64,000 bases of DNA, taken from assembly GCF_040802235.1 (NCBI RefSeq), contig NC_133162.1, positions 575,501 to 639,500 of the forward strand, in the 5' to 3' direction. The notes under the pieces were generated by a model that saw only the letters and a program-made list of their open reading frames with translations, was not told where the DNA came from and did not search any database. The stretch's first letter is position 1; every line of letters starts with the position of its first letter. Made by a program: the position numbers and the translations under genes. Shown one piece after another: positions 1-35,900 of the stretch. Source of the stretch: Manis javanica (lineage: Eukaryota; Chordata; Mammalia; Pholidota; Manidae).

Positions 1-1230
1 CCAAGTCCAAAAACCTCGAACTGGCCCTTGGTGGCTACACCGTCCCCACCCCCCATCCTCCAGCATGAATGGGGGCCACGGCATCTGCCCTGCTGGCTTC
101 CTTCCCAGCAGTTCCAGGGAACCTCTCTCCCTGCTCTCCCAGCTGTTCTGAGGCAGCCCATCACAAACGCTTCTGGACACCTGGCTGGATCCTCAGTCCT
201 GCACCTTCTCTTTCCTCCCAAGCACCCATCACCCGGGCACATTGCATGTCCGAACTCCTGGCTCCCCTTTCTGTGAGCTGGCTCTCCACTGCGGCACCCT
301 GGGCCTTCACACCCCCACCCTGGCACTTGGGCACACACCCACTTAGTGCAGACAGGCTCAGTGAGTCATGCACAAAGGCGCACTCACTTTAAGTCTGGTG
401 CATGTCAGCACCCCTCCAGAAAACCCTCCAGGTGTGCCAGGGCCGGCTTTGACTCGGGAGGGGTCAGTTCCTTCCTGCTCCTGGGCAGGTGCACTATGCC
501 CAAGAAGCCTGCCTTTGCCAGACACACCTCCTGCTGGGGGATGGCTCAGGGGTACTAACCCAGCAGGGCTGCGCCCTGGAGCCAGATCAGGAAAGGCTTG
601 GATGCTGGCTCCCCAGTCTTCCTCACCAATGCGAGGAGCCCAGTGCTGGCCGGCACATGCCCAGGAAGGCATGGCAGAGGCGCCACTGCCACGGGGTTTC
701 AATGTTTCTGTGGGCAAAGCAGCCACCTGTTTCTTTTTGGCTTCCAGCACTGGGGCTACTGCTACTGTGGAAGTCAGATCCCAAGGAGACAAAGACAAGC
801 AGCTTCACGTGCTGACCTGTCCGTCCGCACGTGCAGAGGTCACATACACAGCACAGGAAAGCACCCAGCTTTATCTTCTCCAACTGGGAAACCAGGTCTT
901 CCAACAGCTTATATGGAATAAATTACGCTTTTACTGCCCTGAAAGCCCCACACATAACAAGCCCACTTCTGGCTGCTGTTTGCTGACTGCTGTTTAGTTC
1001 CTAAACTAACCCGTTAGCAGTTTTCAGTGAAGGAATAGCTTTAAAATGTCTTCTAACAACTAAACCCTGCAGGCAGGTCAGGGCTTCAGGCCCCACCTGT
1101 GGGTCAGCACAAGGCCCACACCAGGGTGTCACTGTGGCAAGAACACAGATGGCAAATGCCCCTCCAGGGAGACTGAGGGACAGGATGGTGTCTGACACCC
1201 CAGCTGCAGGCTTCTGGCTGCCATGCTTCC
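1..1230. other. Intergenic sequence downstream of VENTX
   Basis: No exon of a recognised gene was found on either strand. The open frames here overlap one another on both strands and show no domain or splice structure. In human the next gene beyond VENTX is ADAM8, but none of its exons was recognised here. Confidence 0.5.
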
Positions 1231-1607
1231 TCAGAAGACATCCCCAGTCTCTGGCTGGGCACACAGGCCCCAGGATCCCCTGGACAAGGCTGGGCCCAGC
1301 AAGTGCATCTGGTCCCCAGGGCCTGGGAGGCAGCAGGTCGGAGGCGGTTGCACGAGGCCCATGCTGAAGCCAGGGAGGCTTGTTCCAGTTGGCAGGGATC
1401 CCAGGAGCAGCCAGGGGGCTGTACCAAAGCCAGGGGCCCAGGGAGGGATGCCCAGGGGTACAGGAGCTGCAGGCAGCTGCCCAGGGCAGAGGGTGGTGGG
1501 CAGAAAGCCAGGGGTGTGTAAAGAGCTCCAGAGAAGGGGATGCTCAGCTGGGAGTCCTGCACTTGGCACTTGTGTTTCATCTGGCGATTCTGAAACCAGG
1601 TTTTTAT
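1231..1607 (-). pseudogene. VENTX: VENTX exon 3, recognition helix and broken C-terminus
   Basis: The acceptor is ttcccacag|ATAAAA. It opens with IKTWFQNRQMKHK: W48, F49, N51 and K55 are intact, but Arg53 is Gln. About 90 codons on, homology to the human C-terminus moves into another frame (LLGPALS, then GLCAQPETGDVF) and ends at TGA 1231-1233. In the unshifted frame translation runs to a stop at 1104-1106. The ancestral exon length of 377 nt is one short of a multiple of three. Confidence 0.85.
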
Positions 1608-1707
1608 CTGTGGGAAGAATAAGACCGGAGCAAAGGCCATAACAGGCTCTGCACCCAACTGCCCCCCTCCACCCCCTCGCCAGCCAAGCCCCCGCCCAGC
1701 ACCTCAC

Positions 1708-1868
1708 CTGCACCTCTGAGAGCCGCATCTCCCAGGCCAGCCTCCTGCACTCCAGGGGGCCCAGGTAGTGCTGGCGCTGGAAGGAGCTCTCCAGGGTGCT
1801 GACCTGCTCCGCTGTGAAGGCCGTGTGGAAGCGTGGAGCCCGCGTGGGGTCTGCGTCCTTGCTCAGCC
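1708..1868 (-). pseudogene. VENTX: VENTX exon 2, homeodomain helices 1-2
   Basis: Acceptor ttctcag|GG and donor GTGCAG|gtgagg give 161 nt, starting with two bases that complete a glycine codon. It encodes homeodomain residues 1-44. Core residues are kept (F8, L16, F20, Y25, L26, L34, L40). Arg5 of the minor-groove arm reads His and Arg31 reads Cys, counting homeodomain positions from the Trp48 landmark in exon 3. Confidence 0.9.
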
Positions 1869-3508
1869 CTGAGAAAGGGAAGGCAGGCATGCATTTGGCT
1901 AAAAATCCACACATGGGGCGTGCTCCCTGTGTCTGGAAGGCCCAAGCTCCATGGCTGCAGATGGCAGGCAGTGACAAGCATGGTGGAGGCCTTTTTATAG
2001 TGGCCCTCCACTGCTCTGCTGCCCCGCGCAGTCGATCAAGGCGACAGACCCTGTGAATGTGGGAAAGGCCTGGAGACTGGGCTCAGGACACTCTTGGGGA
2101 CATGGATATCGCAGCAACAGGACTGTGCAATGGACAGCAGCTCCCCTTCTCATGTCCCAGCACCCTGGGTCCCTTCCAGAGAGCAGTTCTTTGCATGGAA
2201 GGAACTCCAATTCACTAGGCGGACTGGGTGGATAGCAGTGAGGACCTGTGGAGTCCACTCTGTGCAAAGGCCTGAGGGCCGGGGAAGCTAAGGGCTCGCC
2301 CTTGGCACCACAACCCAGGCTCTGCCCCCAGTTGTGTGTCTAAATTTAGTAAGCCTGTTTTCTAATTTCCCAATTAGGAGATGGGGGTGGGACTAAGCAC
2401 CCCCGACCTCGGAGGTGAAGGAAGTCAGTGTGATCAAGACGGCCTGCGTGGTCACCACTTGAGTGTCTGGCCAAGGTGCCAATGATCTGTCTTTGGGGGG
2501 AAGCAGGTTTTACAAAATTAGTTTTAACACTTAGCTGGGAGCATACAGTAGGTAAAAGGCACAAAAGCTGTGGAGTGGGTGGAGAGGTGATGGGTGTATC
2601 ATCAGCAGGAAAGGTTTGATACAGGGGTCATTGGCTGGCATTTTTGGGTGGGTACTCTTTATGGACCACTTAAAATTTCTCCTCATTGAAGTATAAATTA
2701 TCCCATATGTATTAAACTTTTTAAAAAAATGAAAACTTATATGTAGTAGCTCCACTTTCAACCACGTGGGAATTTAAACCTAAAAGCAAGGATTATGTCA
2801 CAAAGACTATAAAAGGCAAACCGAGCAGGGTCTTGTCAGCAAACGACAAAGGTATGAGGTTCAGGAAGCCGGAGGCCTCCCGGGAGCTGCAGGGCACAGC
2901 CCTGGTCCCCGAGCCGAACCTGTAGGTTCTAGGGGGGCTCTGGGCAGGCTGGGGTCTAGACAGCAAGCTATGGTGTCTGGCCACAGGGACCCCTCTGAGC
3001 CGGAGAGGTGCTGTAACTTTAAGAAACACTTACCCACGACTCTGACTCTTCTAGAGATAGGTCCCAGAGACATCCTATGAACTTTAAAAGCACGTGCACG
3101 AAGGTGCTTCCGTTCTGACCCTGTGAGGACTTGCGGGGGAGGGACAGTGGTGACTCTCTGGGCAGTACAGGAGCAGCCAGCCTGGCCAGAGGGCAGGGGG
3201 CCAAACCCCCTAGAAGAGTGGGTTAGAGGAGCCCCAGGGGGCCTTGCTCGAAGGGGGGAAGCCCTGCAGCAGCTCCTGCTTCCAAGGGAAAGCGCTCACT
3301 TGCCAGAGGGGCCAGCTGAACCTCAAACCCTGGTCCTTGTGAGAACGACCCACCTGCTGCCCAAGCACACGAGGTGCACTCCCTCCAGCCCAACTCCCCC
3401 CTGCACCCTCCCACTCTGGGGAGACAACAGTCGCCCCCTCCCCATCCTGACCCCGGACCTACCCGCCGCCGCAAGGCAGCCTTGGTGCGGACGCTGCTGA
3501 GCGCTCAC
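1869..3508 (-). other. VENTX: VENTX intron 1
   Basis: The intron is 1.64 kb between donor gtgagc and acceptor ttctcag. It holds an AT-richer stretch at about 2500-2830. No recognised repeat family or other gene was seen in it. Confidence 0.6.
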
Positions 3509-3699
3509 CCTTCTCTCGGCTCATGGTCTGCGGGGGCTCCCCGCTGCCAGACACGCTGGCTGGGAGAGAGATCCCCCAGGAGACTTCAGCGGTCCGGAGG
3601 TGCGCAACGGCCCACGTGGCTGCTCTGGGAGGGACAGTCCATGGAGCTGAAGCTGGAGGGTGGCTTGTGGCCACTGGGGAGGGTGGGGGAGAGAAGCAT
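3509..3699 (-). pseudogene. VENTX: VENTX exon 1 (frameshifted)
   Basis: From ATG at 3697-3699 the first frame reads MLLSPTLPSG and then SSFSSMDCPSQSS, matching the human start (MRLSSS, then LSSFGSVDWLSQSS). It stops at 3586-3588. The next frame continues the human homology (AEVSWG, then GEPPQ) and runs into the donor AAGG|gtgagc with the phase needed by exon 2. The shift equals +1 (or -2) nt and falls within about 3586-3625, where no long homopolymer occurs. Confidence 0.8.
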
Positions 3700-5406: not shown

Positions 5407-6041
5407 GAAAAAAGACATATGCACCCCTATGTTTATTGCAGCACTATTTACAACAGCCAAGACATGGAAGCAACCTAAGTGTCCACCAGTAGATGAATGG
5501 ATAAAGAAGAGGTGGTACATATACACAATGAAATATTATTCAGCCATAATCAGTAAACAAATCCTAACATTTGCAACAACATGGATGGAGCTAGAGGGTG
5601 TTATGCTCAGTGAAATAAGTCAGGCAGAGAAAGACAAGTACCAAATGACTTTCCTCATTTGTGGAATATAACAACGAAGCAAAACAGATGGAACAAAATA
5701 GCAGCAGACTCCCAGACTCCAAGAAGGGACTAGTGGTTACCAAAGGGGAGGGGTGGGAGAGGGCAGGTGGGGAGGGAGGGAGAAGGGGATTGTGGGTATC
5801 ATGATTAGTGCACATGGTGTGTGTGTGGTCATGGGGAAGACAGTGTAGCACAGAGAAGACAAGTAGGGACTCTGTGGCATCTTACTACACTGATGGACAG
5901 TGATTGCAATGGGGTATGGGGAGGGACTCGATAATAAGGGTGATTCCAGTAACCACTTTGTTTTTCTTGTGAAACCTTCATAAGAGTGTGTGTCAATATC
6001 TTAATGAAAAACAAAACAAAAAACCCCATAAAAACAAAAAC
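5407..6041 (+). mobile_element. L1 LINE 3' end, 5'-truncated (copy 1)
   Basis: The translated stretch 5429-5671 carries the hallmark end of L1 ORF2 (the MFIAALF, EYYSAI-like and MLSEISQAEKDKY motifs). A 3' UTR with GGGAGGG-rich tracts and an A-rich tail near 6005-6041 follow. The element begins abruptly at the ACATATGCACCCC site, so only the last part of ORF2 is present. Confidence 0.9.
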
Positions 6042-11374: not shown

Positions 11375-11868
11375 CTACAGAGGGGCCGGGCGCGGGTCCG
11401 ACAGGACGCCCCGCTCGGCAGCGGCACTGCCCAGGATGAAGCCCACAGCCAGGGACACGGTCTGGTCGAATGAGCCGCGAAGCTGCTCCACGTGCTGGTT
11501 CAGGGTCAGCAGCTGGTCGCGCAGTGGGCCCAGGACGGCCACGATGTCACCCAGGTGGCCCAGGGTCTGCAGCAGGGCGGCATTCAGCGACGGGGGCGCG
11601 GACTGCGAGGGTGCCTGGTCCTCAGGGCGGCCGGGCACCGAGTCCGGGTCCTCGTGGGAGGGGTCGGGGGTCGGCGCCGGAGGGGAGCTGGGGACGCGGA
11701 TGGGCGCGTGCTCCTCCCGGCGGCCGGATGTGGGGGCGAAGGTGGAGAGCGCCGTCGGGGAGCCCGGGGTGCGGGGATCGTCGGCAGACTTGGGAGAGGA
11801 CCTGCCGAACCGGGGAGTCCAGGCGGGGTCCGCGTCGAGGTCTCGGCTGGCGGGCAGCAGCGGGGCGC
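11375..11868 (-). CDS. UTF1: UTF1 exon 2 (coding part)
   Basis: Starts with two bases completing a Gly codon and ends at a stop at 11375-11377. It encodes a Pro/Ser-rich linker followed by the conserved leucine-rich C-terminal domain, and ends SDPRPAPL. Confidence 0.95.
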
Positions 11869-12516
11869 CTGGAAGGCGGAGCGCGTGGTCGGGTCGGGTT
11901 CCCGGGCCCCGCCGCCCCTACCCACCCCACTCCGCCTACCTGGCTCGGCTGGCGCGTGCGGCGCGCGGCGGCCGCGCTGGGGGCGCCGGGGTCCGGGGGA
12001 GCGGCGGCCGCGCTGGGGGCGCCGGTGCCCGTCGTCGCCCAACAGCCCCATGAGCTCGCGGATCTGCGCGTCGAACGGCCCGGGCGGCTGGCCGTGGGCG
12101 TCGCGGAGCTTGTCCTTGAGAAACTTGTAGCGGCGGCGGCACTGGGCGGGCGTCCGCCGCACCTGCTGGCGGGCCAGCGCGGCGGACACGCGGCGGTAGG
12201 TGGGCAGCGCCTGGCGGCGGTCGAGCAGCAGCGCGCGCCACACGGGCGGCTGCAGCAGGGTCCCCAGCAGCAGCTCCGTCTCGCGGGCGCTCCAGGGCGT
12301 GCGCTGCGCCGAGCCCGGGGACACGGGCGACACGGGCGACCCGGGTGCCGCGGGCGGCCACGGGGACGCGGGCGCCGCCAGCGCGCCGGGCGACGGGGGC
12401 CGCTCGGGCGGGGTCCCCGGCGCGCCCTCGGCCGGCCTCGGCTCCGAGTCCGGGCTGGCGGGCGGCGGCGGCTCGCGGGGGGCGGGCGGCGGCGGCCTGC
12501 GGGGCCGGAGCAGCAT
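11375..12516 (-). CDS. UTF1: UTF1, undifferentiated embryonic cell transcription factor 1
   Basis: UTF1 is a chromatin-associated nuclear factor of pluripotent cells and the germ line. Two exons (11940-12516 and 11375-11868) join in phase 1 through CCAG|gtaggc and ttccag|GC, giving 356 residues (human about 341). The N-terminus starts [10 protein letters not shown] and is Pro-rich. A Myb/SANT-like domain lies at about residues 70-140 ([12 protein letters not shown], then [17 protein letters not shown]). An Arg-rich stretch at 165-187 holds two copies of RRPQRGRR. The conserved C-terminal leucine-rich domain lies at about 286-350 ([11 protein letters not shown], then [11 protein letters not shown]). 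The start was chosen by agreement with known orthologues. The frame is also open further 5', but that part is CpG-island sequence without homology. The gene appears intact. Confidence 0.95.
11940..12516 (-). CDS. UTF1: UTF1 exon 1 (coding part)
   Basis: Encodes residues 1-192 plus the first base of codon 193: Pro-rich N-terminus, the whole SANT-like domain, and the Arg-rich segment. ATG is at 12514-12516. Confidence 0.95.
11965..12025 (-). repeat. 36-bp duplication inside UTF1 exon 1
   Basis: A 25-bp GC-rich word at 11965-11989 recurs identically at 12001-12025, an offset of 36 bp (12 codons). It produces the repeated RRPQRGRR in the Arg-rich segment and keeps the frame. Confidence 0.85.
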
Positions 12517-17902: not shown

Positions 17903-20900
17903 CTGCGTTGGGGGGAGAAATGACACCTAAGTTTGCACAAGTCACAAAGGGCGGCATTCTGGGGGTCCCCAGGACACCCGAGGTTGTCATCTAAACCAAA
18001 CCTTCATAGCACAGGCTGGGGGTGAGTTTGCTGTGTTTATTCCCAAGGCCAAGGCTCATTTCATTACCCAGGCCTGTCTGTCCTCCTGCCCTGTCCCTCT
18101 GTCCATCCACTTCTCATCCCACACTATTCACTGGATGTCTGTGTTGGGCCCTGGTCAGCACTAAGGATCCCAGCATGGATCAGAGCAAGGGCAGCACCGA
18201 GGGCGCAGAGGCAGATGAGCATACGTGGGGTCACGTGGGGCACACGAGCGGTTGCTGGCTGCACGTCTGATGTCCCGGGGCAGCTCGAGAGCCACCGAGG
18301 GAGTGCTGGCAGCCTGATAACCGGCTAACGCTGGCAGACATTCCCCTCCTGCTGGGGCGCAAGCGCTCATGTTCCTGCTGGGTGAAGATGAGCCTGTGCA
18401 CGTGTGAGCCGGTCGGGGGGCTGGCTGCTGCTTCTGCGCTCCTGCAGTTTTCCATTTTGCTGATGTGGATTAGTGTATGTGTGGTGCCTCTTACATTGGT
18501 GACTAAACGGGGGCCTCTACAGAGCAGGTTGGAACCACCGGGCTCCAGTTACCTGGGCTATTCGCCCAGTGAGGCCGTCTGCCTGTGCCTCCGAGGCGCA
18601 TGTGGCTGGACGGTGGCCTGGCCAGGCTCTCTGCCGTGTGCATGATGGGGAGGAAGAGCAGAGGGGAATGGGGTGGGGCAGAAGGTCTGGGGGTGAGGAC
18701 CCCTGGAGACAGGCTGCTGGCCCTGCTCTGCGGTACAGCCCGAGGCCTCCAGGGCAGGCCTGGAGCCCCAGGGTGAGGCTGGGCTGGAGGCATGGCTCCT
18801 TAGGGCCTGCCTGCACCTGTCCTCTTTGGCTGGGGACTGGCTAGGGTTGTGGTGGATTCGCAGGCAGCCCCTGTCTGTGCTTCCCAGGGGGTCCCCAGGT
18901 GCGTGGGTCCCCGGGGGTACTGGTCGGGGGACAGTGGGATGGAAGGAGCAGGCTGAGACTGACCGGATCCTACGGGGATAGCTGTAGGGACAGGGGCCCA
19001 AGGGGATCATCAGAGGCCAGGAGAGAGGGAGGAGGGGACACCTGGGGGATCAGGCAGGGTGGCCACATGCCCACAGAAGTGGGGTTCAGGGTGGGCCCGG
19101 ATCTCTTAATGGGTTGGTCAGGTGACCTTGGAGCAGTGTTTTGGGACCATGGGTGCAGTGTGAGAAACCCACTGTTTTTGGAAAGAGGTGGTAAGCAATC
19201 ACCCAGAAGGCCCTGGGCTAGGGTGCGGGCTGAGTGAGGGGCGGGGAGGACAGGGAGACCCCCTGAGCTTGCTCTGCCCTGGGCCCTCTCACCTGAGCTT
19301 GCTCCACCTGTGGGCCCCATTGGTCATGGTGAAGCCCCCCGTCTCCAGCTGCTGGACGTGCATGGCCAGGAGGCGGGCTGAGGGCAGAGTGGGCTGGGCC
19401 CGGAAGCGCCGCCCTTCCATCAGGCACAGGCTGTCGCTCTTGAGGAAGACCTGGGACCCAGCCAGGGGCGCGGGCCGGAGAGACAGCCGAGAGCTCAGGG
19501 CCCAGTGTGCGGCCCAGACAGTCCCACTGACCCCTGTATTCCACTGCATGGGGGCTGCACAGCACCCCGACTTATATCCCATCCAAAATGCCCCTGGGTT
19601 TGCTGGATTAGGGATTGGAAGGCCAGCAGTTTTAAGCTCGCAGGCACACAATGTGCGCCGACACCCACCAGAGAGCTCTGAGCTTCCTGCTGCTGACACG
19701 GCAGATCCCTGACCTCCGGTCCGAGTGGCCCACCTGCCCGGATGAGACCCCCAGCCAGCTGCAGGGTCCCCTGTGTCTGGTGTCAGCTGCGGACGCACTG
19801 CCCTCCCACCCGCAGATGGCTGCCTGGGTGTCTGCCGCTGCCTGCCCCGGCTGCCTTGTTTGCGGCGCCCCCTCATTTACAGTCCCATGAGGCTGCCTCT
19901 GCCCATGGCGAGAAGACCAGAGGGTCAGCCCTGCTCAGGCTGGGCCCCTGGGCACCTGGATCTTGGGCCAGTGGCCCAGCGGGGGGCTCTTAGAGCTTCG
20001 TGGCCACCCTTGGCAGAGGCCCCTTGGGGAGAGGGTGAGGCCACGCTAGCCGGGCTGCTCCATGTGTGACACTGAGGGCGCTGTGACACAGCGTGTGCGG
20101 GTCTGTGGTCGGGGAGAAGCCCCGGTGCACGTGGGCAGCAGAAGCCCACATGGAGCGGCGTACCTCCACGGCCTTCAGCTCCTCCATGACCTCAGCTGTC
20201 TTTGCGGGTAAAATCCTCCAGGCCTGAAATGAAAGCGCTGGTGAAACCCCCGGCCTGGGTCCTGCCCAGCCCTCCCGCCCAGCCCGGCGACTCACAGGGG
20301 CCTGCCTCACGGCGAGGTGCTCCAGGGCCCCCAGGATCTGCATGGCCGTGGCAAAGTTCCTCTGCTCATAGCAAGATTTCGCTATCAGCAAAAACTTGGA
20401 CAGCAGGTCCACCTGCAGCTGAGAGCAGAGGGCGGGTGGGCGGGGAACATCCAGGACCTGTTAAATGACCCAGCACCAGGGCGCGCAGCGGCTCCCCTCC
20501 CTCTGTGGGGCAGGAGGTGGGCAGGGGAGCGCGGGTCTCGGATGGCCATGGGGGGCGCTGGGTGGCAGGCGGGCATTACCTGAAGAAACAAGCAGGCAGA
20601 TGCTCTGTGAGCACAAAGGTGTCGAAGAAGTCACCCTCATTTCTCTAAAACAAACTCACTCCCGGGCAGACCTCTGCACTAGGTGCAGGATGCTCTGGGG
20701 CTGGGGGCAGCTTCAGGACCAGAAGGGCATGTCAGCCAGAGACAGTGGGGCGGCCGGCTGGACACAGGGCCTGCCGCCGTATCTGCTGCAGGGTGAGGGG
20801 GCAGCGCCTGCCTGGGGGTCTGCTCCCACCAGGTCCTGCACATCCTCCATGGTTCGCTGGTCAGTTGGTGGAGCACAGACCATATCCAGTGGGATTCTCA

Positions 20901-23900
20901 CTCCCAAAGGGGCTGTGCGGCTTCAGAGCAGACCCGAGGGGCCCAGCTCATGAACCCACAGGTAGTGCTTGGGTTTCACACAATTCCAGAGACTTCTAGA
21001 AGATTCTGGAGCGCTCAGCCAACTCCTCATTTCAGAGTCGCCTACTCTTGGACTGTCACAATGGCCAGGCCACCCTTCAGGTGGGAAGTGCCGGTGGTTC
21101 CCAGCCAGGTGCCCTTCCACAGGGCCTGGCGCCGTTTGTGGTGATCCTGATGGGCTGGCAGCTTGCCAGTCAGGCCCCGAGGCTGTGCACGGTCACAGCC
21201 TCCCAGCGGGCTGGTGCAGGGGCTCGGGAAACAGGTGCCCACTTGGACGCTCATGTTGACGATTCAACTTTTCCTCCATGTGTTTGAATAGATGGAGACT
21301 ATGTAATTTCCAGCACTTTCACATAAAACTTCCTCACATTTTTGTTTTCTACAAAATGTTTGTGGTAAAAAAATGCATGATACAAAGTTTACCTTCCTCA
21401 CCATGTTCATACAGTTTGGTAGCGTTTGCTGTGCTCACCCCGTTGGGCCACAGACCCAGAGGCTTGTTTTGTCTGAAAAAACTGAACATCAAACGACCAC
21501 CGCCTCCCGCTGCCTGGCCCTGGCGCCCCCACCCCACCTCCCGCTCTCATCCGGCCACCTCAGAGGCCGTTGGGAGCCCTGGTATTTGTCTCTGGACCTG
21601 GCTTACTTCACTTGGCACGCCCCCAAGGTCCATCCATGTGCCCGTGCCAGGGTTTTGTTCCTTTTTGGGGCTGAGTAGTATTCCAGCGTGTGATGCGCCA
21701 CACCCAGCCATTCGCCCGTCAGTGGACTTGGGCTGTGTCTTCCTTTCAGCTGCTGTGTCCCATCACTTTTAAACCTATCTGATGAAACTGGGACCCTGTT
21801 TTGCTTTCAAACCCACCACTATTCATCTAAGAAAAGACAAGATTTCCTTTAAGGTGAGGAACTCCATGCTGCCTCACGCTCGCCTCGCATCCCTGCCCTG
21901 CCCCCAGGGAAGGTACTGTTGTCACTGAGCGCTTCTTTGGCCGCCCAAATATCTCTAATTCAAAGTGTGAATTTCAACAATTTCTGTGACCACAGTTCAC
22001 AAGCGTGGAAGCCAGCCTTCCGGGTCGGTCCGAGGTCACAGTAAGAGCAACATGCATTTCAGAACGGGGGAGCCCGCTGACAGAGGTGGGGCTTCCCCGC
22101 CGGTGGCTCGACTCACTTGTCTGGGCATCTCCGCCTCTCCTGGGCCTAGGGAGGCTGGGGCTGGGTGTGTGCCGGCAGGTGGCTCCCTCGTGCTGGCCTC
22201 CGGGGGTGCAGACTCGGGACGGGGAGCCCACCCCCTCCTGGGGGCTCAGGGCTGAGGGATGTGCCCAGGCAGCCAAGGGCCGTGAAGTGGCTGCCGACGT
22301 GCTTGCTCATGTCCCCTTAGAGGGTCCTTGTCATGCCCAGTCGCACAGGCCCGCCTGAAGACCCCAAATCGAGGACCCATATTTTGAGGTCACTTGATAA
22401 TGTTATGGGTTAGAACAAACAGGTAAGCCCAGGGTCCCTGCCCCACGTCCTGGCAGAAGAGGACGGGTCAGTTGGGCAGCGATTAAGCCACCACAGCTCA
22501 AACATTCTCCCCAAAGGGGGAAAGAGAAGAAAACTGCACCGCTGGTGGGCCTGGGGTTGCCCCTGGGGCAGGTAGTGCCCGGACGAGGCCGCTCGTGCTG
22601 GAATTGGGTACAGCCTGGCTTTGCCCTTGGGTCGCGGGGTGGCCTCTGAGGACTCCAGGCAGCTCCTGGGCAGTGCCCCGCACCCTGAGCCCCTCAGTAC
22701 GCTCAGCCTGCTCCAGGGCCGCAGCAGAGGGTTCATGCCCCGGAGCCTGATTGTTTGGGCTGCATTTGCTTTAAGGGAGCTGCTGCCCAGGAGGTGGTGA
22801 GCGTCCACCCACAGGATGCATCACACAGGCCTTGCCTTCGTTCCTCCACGTCCGTGGGGTCACCTCAAACCAGCAGGATGTGACAGCGCACCCTGAGGCT
22901 GGCCTAGGGTGTGAGGACAGGTGTTCACTGGGCGGAGGTGCAGACCCAGGGCCGGAGCCCTCCCTAGGGGCAGGAGCCCGTGGTGGGGGCACTGGTCTCG
23001 AGATGGGTGCTGGTCCCTCTTGGCCTGCCCAGCGCCCTGCCTGGAGCAGGTGTGTCAGCTCAGCCTGATATGCACAGTCCACATGCCTGGAAGGCTGGGC
23101 CTGGACCCGGGATGGCAGGAGCTTGACCTTGACCTGTTTACCCCACAAACTGGTGAGGGCAGCTGTGCAGGGGGGACAGTGAGATGCTCACACCCTTGGA
23201 GTTCAGGTTAATGGGACAACTGGCAGCCACAGTTCCCAGCTCCAGGTGTGTAAGTGTGGGACATGGAGGGTTACACAGTGTGTGATGTGTGTGTGTGACT
23301 GTGGGACACTGATACTGTGTGACACCTGTGTGACTGACATGGTATATATGACTGTGTGTGACGTGTGTGTGACAGTGGTACTGTGACACGTGAAGTGGTG
23401 TATATGGCTATGTATAATGTATGAATGACAGTGTGTGTGACTGTGACACTGACGTGCGACTGGTGGTGTGTATGTGACTGACACATGGTGTGTGTGACAT
23501 AGTGTGTTACTGTGTTAGAGGGACCCCTGGTGAGAAGGAGTGAGCATGTACACGTATGAGACAGGTGCACGTGTGTGAACGCTCCATGGATGAGATGACG
23601 GGTTTTCCATGGCCTGCTCTGTCCCCAGTAGAGTGCTGGGCCATCTGGGCTGGTGTGACAGGTGGGCATGTGGACAGCCAGATGTCACTGGCAGCAGGAG
23701 CTCCAGCCTTGCCCCCCGTGGCTGGGCGTGGGCTCCGTGCACCGTGCATGCAGGCCGCAGGAGTGTTGCCCCCCCACCCCCGTGCCCCAGGCCTGCGCTG
23801 GCTGGAGCTGTGAGGCACCGACCTTGGGGGTGTGGCTGGTCACGATCTCGGCAGCCACCCAGGTGCTGACGTCATCCGCACTCCTCAAAAGCTGTAACAG

Positions 23901-26900
23901 GTACTTGTCCTGCATGCAGCTGGGTGGAAATAAGCTGCAGGTTTTGGCTGACAGAGGCTCGGAGCTGCTGGCTCTGGGAGGGGCATAGGGGCATGTCACA
24001 GCCAGGACCTGCCCACTGCCCAGTCCCTGGGGCACAGAGGGCTCTGCAGAGCCAGGCGGCGGTGGGCGGGCTCTGCCCAGTGGGGAGGGTCTGGTTCCAA
24101 GGCTGTTCACACCAGCATCTCTGAGTGTGCACGCGGCACTTAGAGTGCCCCCACGCCCCTCCCACCCCGAGCTCCAGGCAACACCCTGCGGGTGCACACT
24201 CACCTGGGGACGGCCACGCTCTTGTCCACGACGCCCAGGGCCCGTGAATTTAGGAAGTGGACGGGATGGCACTTTTGAAACAATTCCTACCGGAGACAAG
24301 GACACAGAGGCTCAGCACCTTCCCTGAGGCCTTGTGTCCACCTCGGGGTGAATGGGGCCCCCCTGCGGTCACGGGGTCAGCATCTGCTGCCAGTGCTGCA
24401 GGGCTGAGCCCTGGGGGATTCTCCAGGCTTGCTCAGCCGGACGACAGTCAGGGGTCACTGCTCACCTGCCAAGGGACATGGGGACCCAGGCCAGCAGGGG
24501 GCTGGGGGCTGGGCTCTGGGTGGTGTACCGAGCTCCAGGAGAGAGGAGGCTGTGCCCCACAGCCATGCAGGGTGCCCCCCTGGTGCGTGTGAGGCGGGGG
24601 GTGTCAAGGTGGGGGAGGGGGTGGGGGCAGCCCTGTGTGCAGAGTGGGCCCAAAGCCCCCCCACCCCCTCGCCTCGCCACCAGCGCACATTGGGGAGCTG
24701 CAGCAGGCCCCTCCCCGTGACACTGCAGGGGAGCCATGTGCACCCCCCAACCCCCCGTCCTGGGGCTGCGGCTCCACCTGCTGCAGGAGCGTCAGCTGAC
24801 TGAAGAGCTGGTGGGTGCTGTACTCGGTCAGGAAGTAGGGCCCCTTCTCGCTGGCCCTGGCATAGGGGCCGTAGAAGTCCTCGAAGAGGCAGGGCTTGGG
24901 CAGGGCTGATGCGATGGTGTATTGGTGCCCCTTGTGGGGCAGGGCCGGCCCGCTGCCGCGGGACAGTCGCCAGGGGAAGCCCTGCGGGCAAGGTGCACAT
25001 CCTGCCAGCGGAGGCCTGGCCGTGGGCGTTTCGGCCCAGGACCCCTCAGATGGGCTCAGGTGGAGCTAAGAGCGAATCCTGCCTGGGCCATGGTGGCTCG
25101 GGGACACTTGGACCCCGCATTTCAGAGCCACTGAAGTCAGGATGTCGCGGTAAATTAGGGAGTGGCCCCTCAGCCCCATCCCCGCGGCTTCCTGACCAGC
25201 TGCTTCTTCCGCCGGGCCCCTGACCCCAGGGTCAGGGAGGTGGGTGGTCTCAGCGCCTGGTGGGTTCTCCCTGCGGTCCTTGACCCACATGGCTGGTGCC
25301 CAGGACTGACAACATGGGGAGCATGTGTACACACAGGGGCATGCATAGGTGTGTGTGCAGGCGAATGCTTGTGTATGTGCACACGTGAGCACATTACAAA
25401 TGTGTGCATGCCTGTGTGTGAGCATGTGCATGTGTGTCTCCTGGGCTGGGCCCAGGAAGCAACCCGCCTGCCCAGGAGGCCCTCTCCCAGAAAGGTCCCC
25501 ACCTTCCGGGAGATGCTGTCTTCTGAGAGCCTCTTACAGAGGGCATTGAGGGGCCTGGTGTCCTCCTCGGCCTCCTTGGGGTCGTCCGGGTCTGAGCTGC
25601 GTGGGGCACCCTCAAACCTGCAGTCGGTGCCTACCTCCAGGAGGCCCAGAAGGTGCTCAGCGGAGCCGTCCAGGGGCAGGATCTGGGCAGGAGCACAGAA
25701 CGGTCATGTGGCCCCTCCGGGGGCAGCTACTCCCACCCCAAGTGCCACTCATGGCTGCCACCGGCCCAGCACCTTGGAGGAGATGAAGTCCTGCAGCCTC
25801 CCCAGGAGCCCAGCATCCAGTGTGAAGTCCACAGCATAGCAGTCCTCCACCCAGGCCTGCAGGAGGCAGAGGCTCCTCCTGTAGATCTTGGTGAAGGTAG
25901 AGGTGGGGTCCTGGTGAGCCCTGGAGCAGACAGAGGAGGCCTGAGCCCCGGGGCCCTGCCAGCAGCCACCACGTGGACCGTGGCATCAGGCAAGCAGGTC
26001 TGTGCAGGGTCTGAATGAGGCTCCATCTTCCAGGGGTTACATCGGTCCTACCTTGTCCTCCTTGGGACCAGGCTCTGTATCTGGGGCAGAGCCCCTGACG
26101 TGTCTTCACCCACGCCTGGTACCCCATCTGGAGACCCGCCGGCCCCCCAAGAAACAGGGTGGGAGCCAGGCGGAGCGTGAGGTTGCTGGTGGCCTGCTGG
26201 GCTCCTAACCCGGGGATCTGGGGGTGGGCCTGGCGAGGGGACGCCTGGGGGTCTGGGAGTGGGCTGCTGGGGGGTCTCGGGTGGTGGCAGGCAAGCTGGA
26301 AGACAGGCCTGAGGCGTCCAGCACAGTCGCCCCTGTCCATGGGCTGATGCAGAGGGACGCTGTTGTTCTCTACCTTCCCACCTTCCCACCTTTGCACCTG
26401 CCCCACCACCAACATCAGTGGCCTCTCCTGGGCCACCACTCCCTCCTGCCACTGCCGTCTGCCTTCTGGGGCCCGGTGTCCCCTTGCTTCCTCCTCCAGA
26501 GGGTCCGTCTTGCCCCTCATGGCTGATAAGCAAGGCACCGGGGCTGTGCCTGGGCTGGGCTGCCCCATGGGGCAGCGTACCTGGACAGGGTGCCGTCGAC
26601 GCGGTCCAGGAGGAACCGCAGGAAGTCATGGGGTGTGCAGAAGTATCGGAAGGTGTACAGGAACTGCTGCACGTAGCCCTCCAGGAAGGCATCGCTGGGG
26701 AGGGACAGTCAGATGTCAGGCTGCACAGCTCTGCCTGCCTGGTGCCCAGGACTCACCTCTGGCTGTGCAGCATCTCCCAACCCTTCACAGATGCTGTGCA
26801 CACTCACACCATGCAGGACACAGCACATGACACCCCAACACACGCACACACATGCACAATTCTCACGCCCTCCACATGCACACGCTCTGCACTTCATGCA

Positions 26901-29900
26901 TGCATCTCCTGTAACACCACAGTGGGTGTGATGCACCCGTCTTGCAGAGGAGGCAGCAGCTGAGGTTGGCCCGGAGTCCCTGCCAGGGGAGGCCTGTCAC
27001 CACCAGCACAGCCCGCTCGGGAGGACGGGCCGGTGGGAAGAGGAAAGAGAGAGCTGCCCTGGGAGGGCCTCCCTGCTCTCTGCCGTTCCCCGGAGGACCT
27101 TGCACCCTAACAGCCTCCCTCGGTGACCATGCTGACACCTGGCCATCAGTTCTGGGGTCACCACAGCCTCCAACCCAAAGAAACCCCAAGGCCTCTGAAG
27201 TGGCATTGGGAGTCCCCAGAAGCCAAGAAGGGTGAGGCCTCCACTGTTGTCTGGGAAGGCAGTCTGTACCCCCAGACCTGCAGGGCCCCAGGCTGGGGGT
27301 GGCCAGGCCATTGGTCCAGGGAGCCTGCCAGGAGTCCCTGCCCCAAGGAGTGGGGTGAGGCTGAGGTCCGTGTGGGACACGGGGCCTTGTTGGCAGGCCT
27401 GGGGGTCTGGGATGCTGGGTGGGCTGATGTTGCTGTGGCCCTGCAGTGAGTGGACTGGCCCCTGCTGCAGGGCAGGCATGCACACCTGCACCCATCAGGG
27501 AGTCGGAGCTGCGGTGCCGTGCTGAGAGGTGGCACGGGGCTCAGCCACGCTGGGTCCTGGGGAGCCAGATGGCTAACTATGGCATGTTTTGATTTGGTGA
27601 TGCCTATGGTTCCAGGCCTTGAAAAGTATACCAGGGTGTTAATTAGGCCCACTGAGTTCTCTGGCCTCCTCCAAAGCCTTGAGGGCACACCTAAGACACA
27701 GACATGCAGGTGCTCAGTAAAGGAGGGGCTGACACAGGTAGGTGCTGATGCAGGGAGGTGCTAACACAGGGAGGTGCTGATGCACACGGGGAGGTGCTAA
27801 CAGGGAGGTGCTGACACAGGGAGGTGCTAACACAGGGAGGTGCTGATGCAGGGAGGTGCTAACACAGGGAGGTGCTGATGCACACGGGGAGGTGCTAACA
27901 GGGAGGTGCTGACACAGGGAGGTGCTAACACAGGGAGGTGCTGATGCACACGGGGAGATGCTAACACGGGGAGGTGCTGACACACGGGGAGGTGCTAACA
28001 CAGGGAGGTGCTGACGCACATGGGGAGGTGCTAACACAGGGAGATGCTGACACACATGGGGAGGTGCTAACACAGGGAGGTGCTGACGCAGGGCACCTTG
28101 AGGCTGATGGAAAAGCCTTTGTCAAGAGTGCAAACATTTCAGATGAGGGAAAGCAGGCACCTTTCCACCTCTTCTGCCCCCTTTCTCCTTCTGGCTTTTG
28201 TTCTCAAAAGGCCTGAGGGGACCCGGGAGCCCGCACCCCTTCCGCTTCCCCACACGGCACTGGAGGTGCACCTGGAGTAGAGGTATGCCATGAGCCCCAG
28301 GGGCGTGCCTGCCTGCAGGACGCGGGCCTTCCTCTGCCGGCCGCCGCGAGGGTGTTTGCTGACATTGTAGAAAATGAGGGATGAGGACTCGTCCAGGGGG
28401 CTGAAGTCCAGCGTGTCGCAGGGCGCTGCCGAGAGGTTCACAATCACGGGCAGGGTGCAAGGCTCCAGGCCCCACCGCTCAGCATACGTGACCTGGTGGG
28501 TGGGGGGCGTCACCGTCTGGGTGGCCGCTGATCCCAGGAGTGGACAGCTTGTGGCCCCTCAGAAATCAGGGCACATTTTTACAACTTAGCTTGGATGGAT
28601 GTCTGAGGTTGTAACCCAGGAACCCGTGGGGCCCTGGGGTGACGCCAGCCCAGAGACTCACCTGCAGGTACTTCTTGACCAGGCTGAGGAACTGGACCCT
28701 GGATTTCATCTCGTCCAGCTGCCCTTTCAGCTTGGACAGTATGGTCTTCACCTCGGAGCCTGGGGCAGGGAGAGTCAGTGCAGAGTGGCCGAGAGGCGCA
28801 TGGCCCGCCCACCCACCCGCCCGCCACTACCTTTATTCCGTTTCTCCTTCTGTAGGAGCTTCTGGTGGAACTTCACAGTCTTCCGGTAGTTTCTCTGCTC
28901 CATCATGAGCTGCTGCTCCAGCTCCTGGTGGGGACAGAGCCTGTGAGCCCGCAGGCACCCCTTGTCCCTTGTCTGGGAGCCCCCGGTCAGCAGGGCCCAC
29001 ACAAAGGGAGGTGCAGGGACGTGGGAAGGACCCGCACATGGGGACAGGGGTGTGCCCGCAGGGGGTCAGAAGCCCTGCTGTGGCTGAGCCGAGGAGTGAC
29101 GAGGAACGAGGTGCAGATGTGACCGTCCCAGGAAGGCGCATTTGGAAAGCAGATCCCATCAGATGCTTTAAAAAGATGAGGCCAAAGTGAGGCAACTGGT
29201 GGAAAATCACCCTCATCAACTGTTCCCCCAGGAAGCCAGGCCCTTGCCATCCCCTGCGGACGAGTGGGCAGAGGAGGGGGTACAGTGACCGTTGCTGGGT
29301 CCTGTCCCGGGGACCCGGGCCCACGCCTGACTGGTCCTTGGATCAGCCACGGGCAGGGGCCTGTGGGGCACGGTGGGGGTCCACTCAGCAAGCGGCACTT
29401 CCCCCGCCCAAGCACGTGAGGTGGTGAGACAGCCCCACGGCCCCCAGCTTCCCACGGTACCCCTGCCCAGGGCTGCATCCTGGGACAAGATGACGCCCCA
29501 GGCCCTGTGGGTGGCTGGCCCTTGGGTCCAGGGATGCACCCCCTCTTCACACCCTGGAGGCCACCATGCACGGGGTTTGCTCCAGCCCCTCAATCGCTGC
29601 TGTGGGGCTTCTATTCAGGCTGACACACGCAGGACCCAGGACCCCCAGGCTGCAGGGAGCCAAGCCCCCGCCCAGCAGAGCATTCAGCCACATGCTCCTT
29701 CAGGAAGAAGTTGCCATGAGCGTTCTGGCAGGGGCAGCCCCCAGCCCCCATCCTTGGTCCCCATTTGCCTGCACGGGGTGTGGGAGGGGCAGAAGGCCCT
29801 GGGACAGTGGATGTCAGAAGGGCTGGGTGCAGATGTGGGCCTCCCTCAGTAGGTGAGCACAGGGACAGCCTCGCCCAGCTGCCCGGCTGCTAGCCAGGCT

Positions 29901-32900
29901 GAGGCGGACATGGTCCTGGGCAGTGAGGGGTCTGGGAGCTTTGGGCTCCCTGCAGTGGGAGGGGTGCACCCCAGCAAGGTGTTGGGCTCCAGGCGGGGGG
30001 CCAGAGGGAGGACAGGTGGGCCTGGGGAGGTGGGCAGAGGCCCAGGGCCGCTCAGATCAGGAGAACATTCCTGCTAAGGGGGCGCTGTCACAGGACGGGA
30101 GCCCCTCCCTGGGCAGCAGCCCGCAGCACCCCCAGGAGGGCAGCCCCAGGCCCTGATCACCATGCCCGCAGAGGCGTTGATCTGAAGGCCAAGCTCACAG
30201 TGGCCGTTTGGGAAGTGAGTCAGCTGACATCCCACAGCAACATGCCTTGCTTTGTGATACATTTGTTTCTGAACATTTTTGTAAAATAATGCAGGTGGTA
30301 TTTTTATTTAAATATTTGAGTGCTGTCTATCTGGTGGTTTTACTGAAAACGTGGCTTATGTGTCTGTCTTTGTCTGTGTGCTGTTGTTCTAGCCACACGT
30401 GGCAGACAGCCCCACCCAATGTCGGAAGGTCCAGGCCCAGGGCGGCCGTGGGGCAGGGGGTGGCCAGGCGGAGGAGGAAGGGAGCTGACCGAGCACAAAA
30501 CCACGTCCCTCTGCCAAACCTCAGTTGCAAAACCAGGTCCCCCAAGATCTCTGGACCCCCTTCTAACTCGGTCATGTATAGGCTGCAGGGGGAGGATGTC
30601 ACACTGGGAACAGTGGGCAGTTGTCTCTGTGGAAGCGAGGGTGGGGAAAGTCGCCTGAGACCACCCCGAGGTTTCCATGTGGCAGATGCTTCTGGAGGAG
30701 GGTGTGGGCCCTGCCTTCACAGCCTGGTCCAAACCCGCCCCCCACATCTGCAGGGCCCCCAAGACTAGCCGCAAGGGTGGGGGATGAGCCCCTGGGCTGT
30801 GGGACAGAGCATGCACCCAGGGCAGGATGTGCAGGAGCCACCGCCACATGCGGCATCTCCAGTACTGAATGAAAGGACATGTCAGTCCCTCTCGTGGTTA
30901 CCCTGTGGGCTGAGCCGATCTGGAACATTCAGCACTGGGATGGCCTGTTGGATGGCGTGGGTGGTGAGACACAGCTGTCAAGGCAGGTGGCCCTGCAGGG
31001 CTGTGTTCACAGTGGGGCTCGGCCCCTGGCTGGACACGCAGCTGGAGAGAGGGCTGGGGTCTCTGCAGCCCCACCCACACTCCCCTGGGGTCCTGGCTTT
31101 CTGGGGATAGGGCAGTGACCCTGGCGGGCTTCCCAGGGCTTCCCGCGCAGCTCAGGACAGATGTGGGGACAACACCCTTGGAGGGCCATCCAGCGTCCCC
31201 CGTCCACGTGTCCTGGCCCCTGGACACCGTGTGCCCAGGCGCGCTCTGGGGGTCTGAGCAACCTCAGTTTATTAACTTAGGTACGAACTTTATACTGAAC
31301 TGCAGACCAGTTCCTGACAAAGACTGTTCTGAGGGTTTTAAAAGTAAATGTATGTGAACTTCAATTCCCACAACACGCGGGATGATGGGCAGGAGGTGAG
31401 CACAGGGCTCGGGCACAGGCCGGCCGGACAGCGGGGCTGAGGAGGGCACCTGGGCCGCGAGCTCCGGCATGCCCTTGGCCTGACCGCGCAGGGTGTTTCT
31501 GTGGGACGGAAGGAGCCCCAGCTTGTGGGAGAACTAAGTAGGAATGCCCCGAACACCGCTCGCAGTGGGAGTACATGTGCCTGAAGGCCGGTCAACACTG
31601 GAGGGCACGCCAGAGACGTGGGCAGAGTGAGAGAGCGCCCTTCACTGAGGTACCGAAGGCAAAGCCTGCTTAGCAGCAGGCGAGGCACAGACGCCGGCAG
31701 AGTGGCCCACTGTCTCCCTTGCTGTGTGCTGCTCACGCACACGCCCAGTGCCTGGCCTGTGCCCCTCGTGCCCTCCCTTTAGGTAGCAAGTGTGAAAGTG
31801 GGCTCACTAGGTTTATACCTGTCGCGTTTTTCTGAGGCTCCTATTTTGAAACAGACACATGGGTTCTCAGAGAAATGTGGACCCGCGGCCACAGGGGCCT
31901 CCCAGCGCACCCGATACAGAGGGCGTGGGGACTCACCTGCCGGCACTCTGGTTCCAGGAGGGACGCCTTCCACGGGGGGCAGAAGCAGGGGGAAGACAAG
32001 GTCACTGCTGGCCGCCCGCCCTGCTGCTCTCCCCCCTGACGCCTCCCTCCTCCGACTGCCGCCCACGCCCCCAGGGTGACCACGGACCAGGCGCCCAGGG
32101 AGGGCCTTTTAGGCCCAGGGAACCTTGTTCCAGCCACAGGATCACGTCCAAACAGGGGCAGGCGCTGGCCCGTAGCTTCGGGCTGAGCTGGTCCGAGCCC
32201 ACTTTCAAGGGCAATCTAAGTGTGGCGAACAGGTGACCTGGGGCTCCTCTTGGTGGGTCCCTGCACAGGCTGCCACCGTGAGGAGGATGCAGGGCAGAGG
32301 AGAGGGCCCTGTAAGCCCACACCCAACTCTGCACAGGGGACCGGCGAGGGGCCACAGCGAGCTGCCCCGTGGAGGTGCTGCCTGTCCACAAGGATGTGGC
32401 TGCAGTCAGTGAGGCCCACCCAAGACATCAGAGGATGTGACCTGTGACATCAGAAGGTGACCTATGATGTCAAAGGACATGACTTGTGATATCAAGGACA
32501 TGACCTGTAACACCAGAAGGTGGCCTGTGGCATCAGAGGGCATGATCTATGACATCAGAGGGTGACCTGTGACATCAGAGGGCGTGATCTATGACATCAG
32601 ATGGCGGCCTGTGACATCAGAGGGTGTGATCTATGATACCAGAGTGTGGCCTGTGGCATCAGAGGGCATGAGCTATGACATCAGAGGGTGGCCTGTGACA
32701 TCAGAGGGCATGTCTATGCTATCAGAGTGTGACCTGTGGCATCAGAGGGCATGATCTATGACATCAGAGGGTGATCCGTGACATTGGAGGACACACAGGA
32801 CTGGCACACGTGCTTTCCCCATGACTGTTTGGAGGAAGTGGTTGGGAAAATCCATGAGGGTGTGGTGAGATGCCTCTGGGTCCCTTTCCTCTTTACTGGG

Positions 32901-35900
32901 TACTGGGCACGGGCTCCACCCTGCACTGGCCCCGTGTCAGCAGGGCTCGCGTCTCATGGTCCAGCCCCCCACAACAGGGATGCCGGTGGGGTGGTGTGGA
33001 CAGCCGGGGAGGGCGAGGTGACCCCAGGATGCTGCCCGTAGGGTCTCTCCTGTCCACGTAGGCTCAGCCACCCTGACGTCTGGTCCGTGAGCCTCAGGTC
33101 CCCAGGCAGCGCTCATCTGTCCCCCTCTATGTTCTCAACTCATTTCTAAATTTTTGTTTGACTAAGTATACATAACAAAATCTACCATTTGAAGGATTTT
33201 CTATCCTGCAGCCACATGGCCCCAGGCGCACTCCCACTGAGCAGCCACCCCTGCTGCCCACCCCAGGGCCCTTCCTCTTGCAGCACCGAACTCTGTCCCG
33301 CGGACGCTGCCTGCCTCCCTGCCCCCTCGCTGTACGCTGTCCCCATGGACGTGGTGCTCCGGGGACGTCCCGTGAGTGAGTCACACAGCGTCTGTCCTGC
33401 GTCTGGCTTGCTGCCCTGAGCACAGTGTCCTCAGGCCCCTCCGTGTGGCCTGTGCAGCATGCCCACCGTTGTGATGGCTGAGGGTCACTCCGCCAGACGC
33501 ACACTCTGCTTTCCTTTACCCGGGCCTCCGTGGTGGACGCTGGGCTGCTGCTCCTCTCAGCCGTCCTGAGTCCTGCTGCTGTGAACCTGGGGTGCACATT
33601 TCCGCATCCCTGCTTTCCCTTCTCTGGTGCACACCTGGACGTGAACACTGCTGGGTCACGGTATTCTGTGTTTACTCTTTCGAGAAGCTGCCTCACTGTT
33701 TTCCACAGCCACCCTGTCTTATGGTCCTGCCAGCAGTGGCCAAGGGTTCTGATTTTTCCGCATGTGCGCCAGCACGCTGTCTGTGTCCCATCTTCACGGT
33801 AGCCCTCCAGTAGGTGTGAAGGGACGCAGCCCTGTGGTCCGAACCTGCTCTTCCCTCGTGACTCATGACCTTGAGTGTCTCTCCCAAGTGCTTGCTGGCC
33901 AGTGTATCCCTTTGGAGAAACATCTGTTACAGTTGCCTATTCTTGGTTGGGTGGAGGCTGGATTCTGAGTTCTTCACGTCCTCTGGCTACTAATCCCTTT
34001 GCAGATGAGCTGCGGACACTCGCCCACGTGCCGGGGGTGCCCTGCACTCTGTGGACACTGTCTTCTGAGGCACAGAGGCTCTGTCAGAGCAGCAGTCAGG
34101 CGGACACGAGCAGGACGGGAGAAAGGAGGGAGGCAGCCCCCCCAGTCCCCACCCAGAGGCCGCCCTGGGCCCCTTGGACCAGCCCCCTTTGAACCCCCTT
34201 GTAGTTCTGGAACATGCGTGCCTAAGGAGACTCGTCACTGTGGTGGCCCCGCTCACATCTGGGTTTTGGCCCCTCACAGGTCTTAGCTGCTCTTGGGAAG
34301 ATGACACCCGAACAGGCAGAGAGGTTGGAGAGGGGGAACCATGGCAGATCCTCAGGGTGGTGCGAGCGCGACCGGGCAGGAGGGGGACCTGCACAGACCC
34401 CGTGAGAGACGCCACGTGAAACCACGCGGGCGGCTGCCCGCCTCGGGGTCAGCCCCTCCTCCGTCTCCGGGGCTGCTTGCCTCTTGCTTTGCTAAACAAA
34501 CCCCCTGCAGATTCAACTCTCTACGTGTCTCCCCCAGACTCTGTCCTTGGGGAAGGCGGGAGTGGGGGGCTCCACATCACCGTGAGGAGCAGTTTTCATC
34601 GTAATTGAGTCCAGTCTGTCCATTTCGCCTTTGTTGCCTGTGCTTCTGGGGTCCCACCCGGGAAATCACGGCCACATCCCCGTTGGGGAGATTTCCCCGT
34701 GTTTTCTCCCAAGTCTGTATGGCTTGGGTGCTCTTGATTTTCTAGGTAATTTTTGGGAACGGCACAAGATACAGGCCCAGCCCCACTCCTCTGGGCGTGG
34801 CCTTCCAGCGTGTTTCACGCGGCCCTTCCCCGTCGGGCGGTCTTGGCGCCCTTGCCAAGAATCATCCCACCGCGTACATGCCTGGGCCCTGTGCTGCCCC
34901 GCCGGTCTCTGTCCGGCTGTGCCAGCGCCACCCTGTCCCAGGGATGGCTTTGTGGTCGGGTCCGAGATGAGGGCGCAGGACCTCCCCAGTCGCTCTTCTT
35001 TTTCACGGTGGTTTTGGCTGTTGGGCCCCTTGGAATTGGACTGTGGGCTGGGCTTTCTGTGTCTGCAAAGACATCGGGGGGCCTCCTCCCTTTTTAATTC
35101 GACCACCTGTATTTCCGTCCTGCTCTGGTCAGGATCCGGTTCTGTGCTCCTTTTGTGCTCAGCCTCCCGGCGCCTCCTGGGACCCTTGACAGGCCCCATC
35201 ACTGCGCTTCGCTCACTTCCTCACTTCCTGGCTCATCCTGTGCCTTTCTCGCCCCAGCCCCAGGTCAGCAGTGTCTCCAGGAGCCCTGGTCCTTCCCTGG
35301 ACCCGGGCCCTGGGCTTGCCTCTGGCGTGTCACTGCACCCGGGCCACTCAGCTGGCAGCTGGACTCTGGCGGGCGCGTCTGTGGGCGAACCGCAGTCTCC
35401 TCCCAGCGCCCCAGCCTCCTAGGGCCTTGCGGCCTCAGGGCAGCCCATGTGGGGAGGCTGGGGGGCCTGTGCTCATCCAGGAAGTGGGGCTGCCCATCCC
35501 CGCCTTCCCTTCCTGAGCCTCAGGTTCCTATCACAGGGGGATGAGGTGCGCTCCCTGCCTTTTTGACGTGCTTGGCTTTCTCCTCCTGGGCACTGGGCGC
35601 TGCTGGGATGAGACATTTAGCCATTGGAGCAGGCACCACTGTGCGTGAATGCATGCTAAGGAAGTGGGGTAAGGCCCCCAGGCCCCCAAAGGAAGGACAG
35701 AAGCCGGGGAGGTTTCAGGGTCTGAGTCCGGTTCTGGGAGCCTCCCTCTCTCTGGCCAGTGCTCCAGATTTGAGTGCAGTGACACGGAGCTTCCACGGGG
35801 CCTCATGCCCTAATGTGGGCCCCGGGTGTCTGAGGTGTGGGCCACACGCCTTGCCAGCTCTGCATGCAGCCCCTGGTGCATGATGAGGCCTGCGGTCACG

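What the first reader, a model, noticed from the sequence alone, without database searches (positions are those of the whole stretch)
1231..3699. VENTX appears to be decaying into a unitary pseudogene in this species
Exon order, splice sites and sequence match human VENTX, but the start-codon frame ends after 37 codons, the rest of exon 1 is in another frame, and the C-terminus is frameshifted again. Rodent loss of VENTX is known. An independent loss caught in progress would say something about how dispensable this Vent-class gene is.
Basis: partly seen in the sequence, partly recalled or inferred. Interest (0 to 1): 0.78.

Follow-up and report, generated by a model that had tools for sequence, protein, structure and literature searches.

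The report
Frameshift-broken VENTX homeobox gene
In this mammal (probably a pangolin) the developmental control gene VENTX sits in its usual chromosomal place but is broken by two reading-frame shifts and by damage to its DNA-binding part, so it looks like a recently dying gene, another case of a loss already known in rodents and some other mammals.

Summary
On the minus strand, three VENTX exons with GT-AG introns lie between UTF1/KNDC1 and mir-202, the order published for eutherians. The start-codon frame stops after 37 codons; the homeodomain frame is one register off the start codon; the ancestral C-terminus (16 of the last 22 residues as in human) is out of phase with the homeodomain. New evidence: the homeodomain has His at position 5 and Gln at 53. 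Of 57 other homeodomains fetched from this genome, 56 have Arg at 5 and 55 at 53; none has His at 5 or Gln at 53. Five of six arginines lost relative to human show codons expected from CpG decay. Genome searches found no second VENTX copy. UTF1, 8 kb away, has an open frame. The homeodomain frame has no stop, so the loss looks young. A 226-residue product from an internal ATG remains possible. VENTX loss is already reported for rodents and marmoset, and VENTX was not found in cow, pig and horse. So: a probable new instance of a known kind. Reads, relatives and transcripts were not available.

The parts
3509..3699 (-). VENTX exon 1 from ancestral ATG (3699-3697) to donor AAGG|GTGAGC
   Evidence: 191 nt, one register off from exon 2; protein match to human VENTX residues 1-28
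3586..3588 (-). Premature TGA ending the start-codon frame after 37 codons
3594..3618 (-). Interval holding the exon-1 frameshift (net +1, equivalent to -2)
   Evidence: no homopolymer of 4 or more in 3586-3625
3522..3524 (-). Internal ATG in frame with the homeodomain (possible start of a 226-residue product)
1708..1868 (-). VENTX exon 2 (homeodomain residues 1-44 at 1839-1708), acceptor TTTCTCAG|GG, donor CAG|GTGAGG
1825..1827 (-). Homeodomain position 5, CAC (His) in place of Arg
   Evidence: 56 of 57 fetched own-genome homeodomains have Arg, the other a stop codon
1231..1607 (-). VENTX exon 3 to the ancestral stop TGA (1233-1231); homeodomain residues 45-60 at 1607-1560
   Evidence: acceptor TTCTTCCCACAG|AT; only one match in the genome as DNA
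1581..1583 (-). Homeodomain position 53, CAG (Gln) in place of Arg
   Evidence: 55 of 57 fetched own-genome homeodomains have Arg, two have Leu
1290..1345 (-). Interval holding the C-terminal frameshift (placed at about 1322; net -1, equivalent to +2)
   Evidence: longest homopolymer is CCCC at 1314
1104..1106 (-). TGA that now ends the homeodomain frame, beyond the ancestral stop
11375..12516 (-). UTF1, open frame of 356 aa with one 71-nt intron (11939-11869): synteny marker and assembly-quality control
   Evidence: six GT-AG pairs keep the frame open; the CAG|GTAGGC ... CCTTCCAG|GCG pair was chosen; Myb/SANT-like domain 1.7e-07
19990..61269 (-). KNDC1 landmarks: RasGEF segment in ORF 19990-20460 and KIND segment in ORF 60616-61269
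   Evidence: 2 of 9 ORFs scanned gave a match; the KIND match is below Pfam's cut-off (E 0.00012)

Best explanation
This is the orthologue of VENTX, inactivated in this species' lineage and in an early stage of neutral decay: a unitary pseudogene. Shown: exon order, splice sites, synteny, no second copy found, two frame breaks, and homeodomain residues at positions 5 and 53 that none of 57 other fetched homeodomains of this genome has. Inferred: a small insertion or deletion in exon 1 cut the protein to 37 residues. Once selection ended, a second one put the C-terminus out of frame, and methylated-CpG transitions turned arginine codons into His, Cys, Trp and Gln. Because 145 codons of the homeodomain frame still have no stop, and the out-of-frame C-terminus is as human-like (16 of 22) as the homeodomain (43 of 60), the loss is probably recent. 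The order of the events is not known.
For: Frame arithmetic and alignments. Synteny KNDC1-UTF1-VENTX-mir-202, the order given in PMC3706607 (passage). Only this locus matched VENTX in the genome by protein and by exon-3 DNA. Arg at position 5 in 56 of 57 and at position 53 in 55 of 57 fetched own-genome homeodomains; His at 5 or Gln at 53 in none. Position 58, basic in 47 of 49 whose match reaches it, is Cys here. Six of 9 human Arg positions lost against 11 of 51 other positions changed (Fisher P 0.012); five of the six carry codons (CAC, TGC, TGG, CAG, TGC) that one CpG transition in a CGN codon would give. Homeodomain identity to recalled human sequence 41 of 57, against 56-57 of 57 for MSX1, NKX2-1, NKX3-1 and GBX2 of this genome. 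Pfam homeodomain score 65.6 against 80.7 bits for human VENTX. UTF1 open in the same assembly.
Against: The homeodomain frame is open from inside exon 1 through the ancestral stop region, and an ATG in it could start a 226-residue protein. The 17 changes relative to human fall mostly at variable positions (mean entropy 2.05 against 1.51 bits, random P 0.01; 3 of 21 near-invariant positions hit, 6 expected, P 0.07), which records purifying selection over most of the divergence. Under a neutral simulation that starts from the present sequence, a stop-free 145-codon frame has probability 0.37 at 0.05, 0.14 at 0.1 and 0.04 at 0.2 substitutions per site, so a long neutral history is unlikely. The splice sites look intact. 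Two of the 57 homeodomains lack R53 and are presumably functional. The CpG argument assumes the ancestral codons, because no related nucleotide sequence was available.
Confidence: 0.85

Rival explanations
1. The gene still works as a shortened protein. Translation starts at the internal ATG (3524-3522), perhaps by reinitiation after the 37-codon frame, giving a 226-residue protein with the homeodomain and a new C-terminal tail.
For: Open homeodomain frame and intact-looking splice sites; ATG with A at -3; a C-terminal frameshift is known in a homeobox gene not regarded as lost, LEUTX of Macaca arctoides (PMC10246821, passage); two of 57 other homeodomains lack R53.
Against: R5 and R53 are both lost; no other fetched homeodomain lacks both. 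HESX1 R160C is linked to septo-optic dysplasia (PMC7084737, passage); I place that residue at homeodomain position 53 from the primer printed in PMC5378840. The original N-terminus would be lost entirely and the conserved C-terminus is out of frame.
Confidence: 0.08
2. Both frame breaks are assembly or sequencing errors and the gene is intact.
For: No raw reads could be checked.
Against: The assembly has 63 contigs for 2.56 Gb; UTF1, more GC-rich and 8 kb away, shows no frame error over 356 codons; the break intervals hold no homopolymer longer than 4; indel errors would not explain the homeodomain substitutions.
Confidence: 0.04
3. The breaks are a segregating null allele, with intact alleles still common in the species.
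For: Only one haplotype is visible and the decay looks young.
Against: Damage at several conserved arginines implies relaxed constraint for longer than a single recent allele would need.
Confidence: 0.03

Closest known systems
Rodent VENTX loss (Zhong and Holland 2011, PMC3141429; passages read)
   Same: Same gene missing from its syntenic place; listed as present in human, chimpanzee, macaque, dog and chicken.
   Different: In mouse and rat no Ventx gene was found in the syntenic region; here all three exons remain readable.
VENTX absence in marmoset (PMC3706607; passages read), and in cow, pig and horse (PMC3141429 Table 2)
   Same: Absence of VENTX in non-rodent lineages.
   Different: Those are absence calls from 2011-2013 searches; here the lesions themselves are seen.
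VENTXP1-VENTXP7, human VENTX pseudogenes (PMC2211742; passages read)
   Same: Broken VENTX sequences.
   Different: The human ones are retrotransposed copies and the parent gene is functional; this one is the parent locus with introns, and no other copy was found.

Membership tests
VENTX orthologue | Synteny KNDC1-UTF1-VENTX-mir-202 | tested here: met
   order from PMC3706607
VENTX orthologue | Three exons, homeodomain split after residue 44, Thr at homeodomain position 47 (Vent/Bar mark named in PMC8911082) | tested here: met
   mark. The human exon structure is from recall.
VENTX orthologue | Match to human VENTX along its length | tested here: met
   (human sequence recalled, not fetched); about 15 residues of human exon 1 have no counterpart
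Unitary pseudogene | Disabling lesions in the coding frame | tested here: met
Unitary pseudogene | Orthologous locus, not a duplicate or retrocopy, with no other copy | tested here: met
   no other copy at these sensitivities; introns present
Unitary pseudogene | Lesions real and fixed in the species | not testable with these tools
   no reads or other individuals; the UTF1 control argues against assembly error
Unitary pseudogene | Neutral evolution (dN/dS about 1) | not testable with these tools
   no related coding DNA held; indirect and mixed signs
Functional homeodomain protein | Arg at homeodomain positions 5 and 53 | tested here: not met
   H5 and Q53, against Arg in 56 of 57 and 55 of 57 fetched own-genome homeodomains; Leu at 53 in two shows that Arg there is not absolute

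The most novel reading that the evidence does not exclude
The frame-broken locus still makes an N-terminally cut homeodomain protein (226 residues, new tail) whose altered DNA contacts give it a changed or antagonistic role, so a gene on its way out was partly reused.
Probability: 0.06. Interest if true: 0.6.

Novelty: new member of a known kind. Interest (0 to 1): 0.35.

Why it matters
VENTX is studied in human blood and pluripotent cells, and mouse lacks it. A further lineage losing it, while UTF1 next door keeps an open frame, adds weight to the view that mammals can do without VENTX. It would provide a loss that can be dated and compared with NANOG, the suggested functional stand-in (PMC3351468, PMC8911082; passages). 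The event is of a known kind, so the surprise is modest.

Tried and rejected
Retrocopy or duplicate: rejected; introns are present and no other copy was found. Chance alignment: rejected (the N-terminal margin is thin). A different exon-1 donor (GTAGGT, seen by eye at about 3462 in the sequence) was considered because human exon 1 is about 45 nt longer; by my own frame counting it does not put the start codon in phase with exon 2, but this was not run in a script. A bat was considered as the source from the L1 tails (memory only) and dropped: genome size and a broken ENAM gene point to an enamel-less mammal. ADAM8, expected left of VENTX from memory, was not seen in 30 kb by a crude motif scan; not pursued. 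ARAGORN found no tRNA gene and Rfam no family at its cut-off in the window; the three weak miRNA matches are far below their cut-offs. Literature: 10 paper searches ran. Pangolin with VENTX gave 0 papers and VENTX with bats gave one unrelated paper; most subscription journals are not held, so this does not show that the loss is unpublished. NANOG as a stand-in was not tested: the search did not complete. I left the odds as they were.

Full report
What is there. The window's first 3.7 kb hold, on the minus strand, three exons with GT-AG introns that match human VENTX in order (the human protein was recalled, not fetched). The order KNDC1 - UTF1 - VENTX - mir-202 is complete: KNDC1 domains at about 20 kb and 61 kb (2 of 9 ORFs scanned, the KIND match below Pfam's cut-off), UTF1 at 12516-11375, and mir-202 at L021:7167-7242, about 2.8 kb left of the window (82.5 bits, cut-off 51). 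PMC3706607 (passages) reports this order for eutherian genomes.

The reading frame. From the ancestral ATG (3699) the frame closes at 3588-3586 after 37 codons. Exon 1 has 191 nt where phase with exon 2 requires 3n+1. Exon 3 has 377 nt to the ancestral stop where the homeodomain frame requires 3n. A frameshift-aware alignment scores 508-536 with shifts at penalties of -26 to -14, and 101 without. At the lax penalty of -8 the aligner spreads five steps through exon 1, so the exact base is not fixed; the net registers are. The last 22 residues match human at 16 positions but lie in another frame than the homeodomain. The homeodomain frame is open from an internal ATG at 3524 to a TGA at 1106-1104, 226 residues.

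Not an assembly slip, as far as can be told. The genome has 63 contigs for 2.56 Gb. UTF1, 8 kb away in sequence of up to 82% GC, has an open frame of 356 codons once a 71-nt intron is spliced. The one shift that the simpler aligner showed falls just after that intron, and PMC3706607 states that mouse UTF1 has an intron; six GT-AG pairs would keep the frame open and I took the one with the best-looking ends. The break intervals hold no homopolymer longer than 4. Raw reads were not available.

The homeodomain. It differs from recalled human VENTX at 17 of 60 positions. As a control I fetched 57 other homeodomains of the same genome: all 42 rows that cover the whole Pfam model, and the 15 further rows that I saw to span positions 5 to 53. 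Position 5 is Arg in 56 of 57; the exception, L080, has a stop codon there. Position 53 is Arg in 55 of 57; the exceptions, L068 and L069, have Leu. Position 58 is Lys or Arg in 47 of the 49 whose match reaches it, and position 31 is Arg in 39 of 57. This gene has His 5, Gln 53, Cys 58 and Cys 31 (one of the 57 also has Cys at 31). Against recalled human sequences, MSX1, NKX2-1 and GBX2 of this genome match at 57 of 57 and NKX3-1 at 56 of 57; VENTX matches at 41 of 57. Of the 7 recalled names tried, Antp, NKX2-5 and LBX1 seem to have no true counterpart among the first 40, and their scores (53, 53 and 42 of 57) say nothing. Six of 9 human arginine positions are changed against 11 of 51 others (P 0.012). 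Five of the six are now CAC, TGC, TGG, CAG and TGC, the products of one CpG transition in CGN codons; the sixth is AGC. Pfam scores the domain 65.6 bits against 80.7 for human VENTX, so the fold is still recognisable.

Evidence pointing the other way. The 17 changes fall more at variable than at conserved positions (P 0.01), and 3 of 21 near-invariant positions are hit where 6 would be expected at random (P 0.07; 20 recalled homeodomains). So most of the divergence accumulated under constraint. The homeodomain frame is stop-free; under a neutral simulation with my own rates, starting from the present sequence, that has probability 0.37, 0.14 and 0.04 at 0.05, 0.1 and 0.2 substitutions per site. 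Both fit a long-constrained gene lost recently. They also leave room for a shortened live protein, and the two Leu-53 homeodomains show that R53 is not absolute.

No back-up copy found. A protein search of the whole genome gave 31 matches: the three VENTX exons and 28 others at 31-46% identity, which look like other homeobox genes. Exon 3 as DNA found itself only. Human, by contrast, has seven VENTX pseudogenes recorded as retrotransposed (PMC2211742, passages).

Which species. Not named by the tools. An ENAM gene with stops in four of its seven matched pieces, a genome of 2.56 Gb, contigs of 65 to 242 Mb among the 16 whose lengths I saw, numbered up to C19, and no tRNA gene match in the window suggest a pangolin, perhaps Manis javanica (2n = 38 is recalled). 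This is an inference; only (taxonomy) touches the name.

Known or new. Passages of PMC3141429 give loss in mouse and rat and list VENTX as not present in cow, pig and horse by its criterion (homeodomain identity over 90%, or lower with the same synteny). PMC3706607 gives absence in marmoset and rodents. PMC3351468 says mammals have a single or no ventx orthologue and suggests partial redundancy with NANOG. So repeated dispensability of VENTX was already in print; a visibly decaying copy in this lineage was not found in the searches made.

Verdict. A working short protein is the main alternative, 0.08.

Noticed in passing
own genome C5:117292290-117294982 (L064-L066): ENAM (enamelin) looks broken: four of seven matched pieces carry stops inside (for example 3 TGA and 6 TAA; 1 TGA and 2 TAG), three carry none; this marks a toothless or enamel-less mammal.
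   Followed up: partly
L021:7167-7242 (+): mir-202 hairpin, full-length match at 82.5 bits, 2.8 kb beyond the window's left end although VENTX beside it is broken.
   Followed up: partly
L080 (own genome C16:56935283-56935453): Another homeodomain-like sequence with a TGA at homeodomain position 5: possibly a second broken homeobox gene; not identified.
   Followed up: no
27702-28069 and 32396-32795: Two minisatellite-like arrays (spacings of 16 and 42 nt) in the KNDC1 region.
   Followed up: no
5409-6561: Two neighbouring copies of an L1-like 3' end, 90% alike over 276 nt, between VENTX and UTF1; the L1 naming is from memory.
   Followed up: no
own genome C12:67527664-67568377: Five near-regular copies (about 9.6 kb apart) of a unit with two homeodomain matches each, resembling a DUX-like tandem array (naming from memory).
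   Followed up: no
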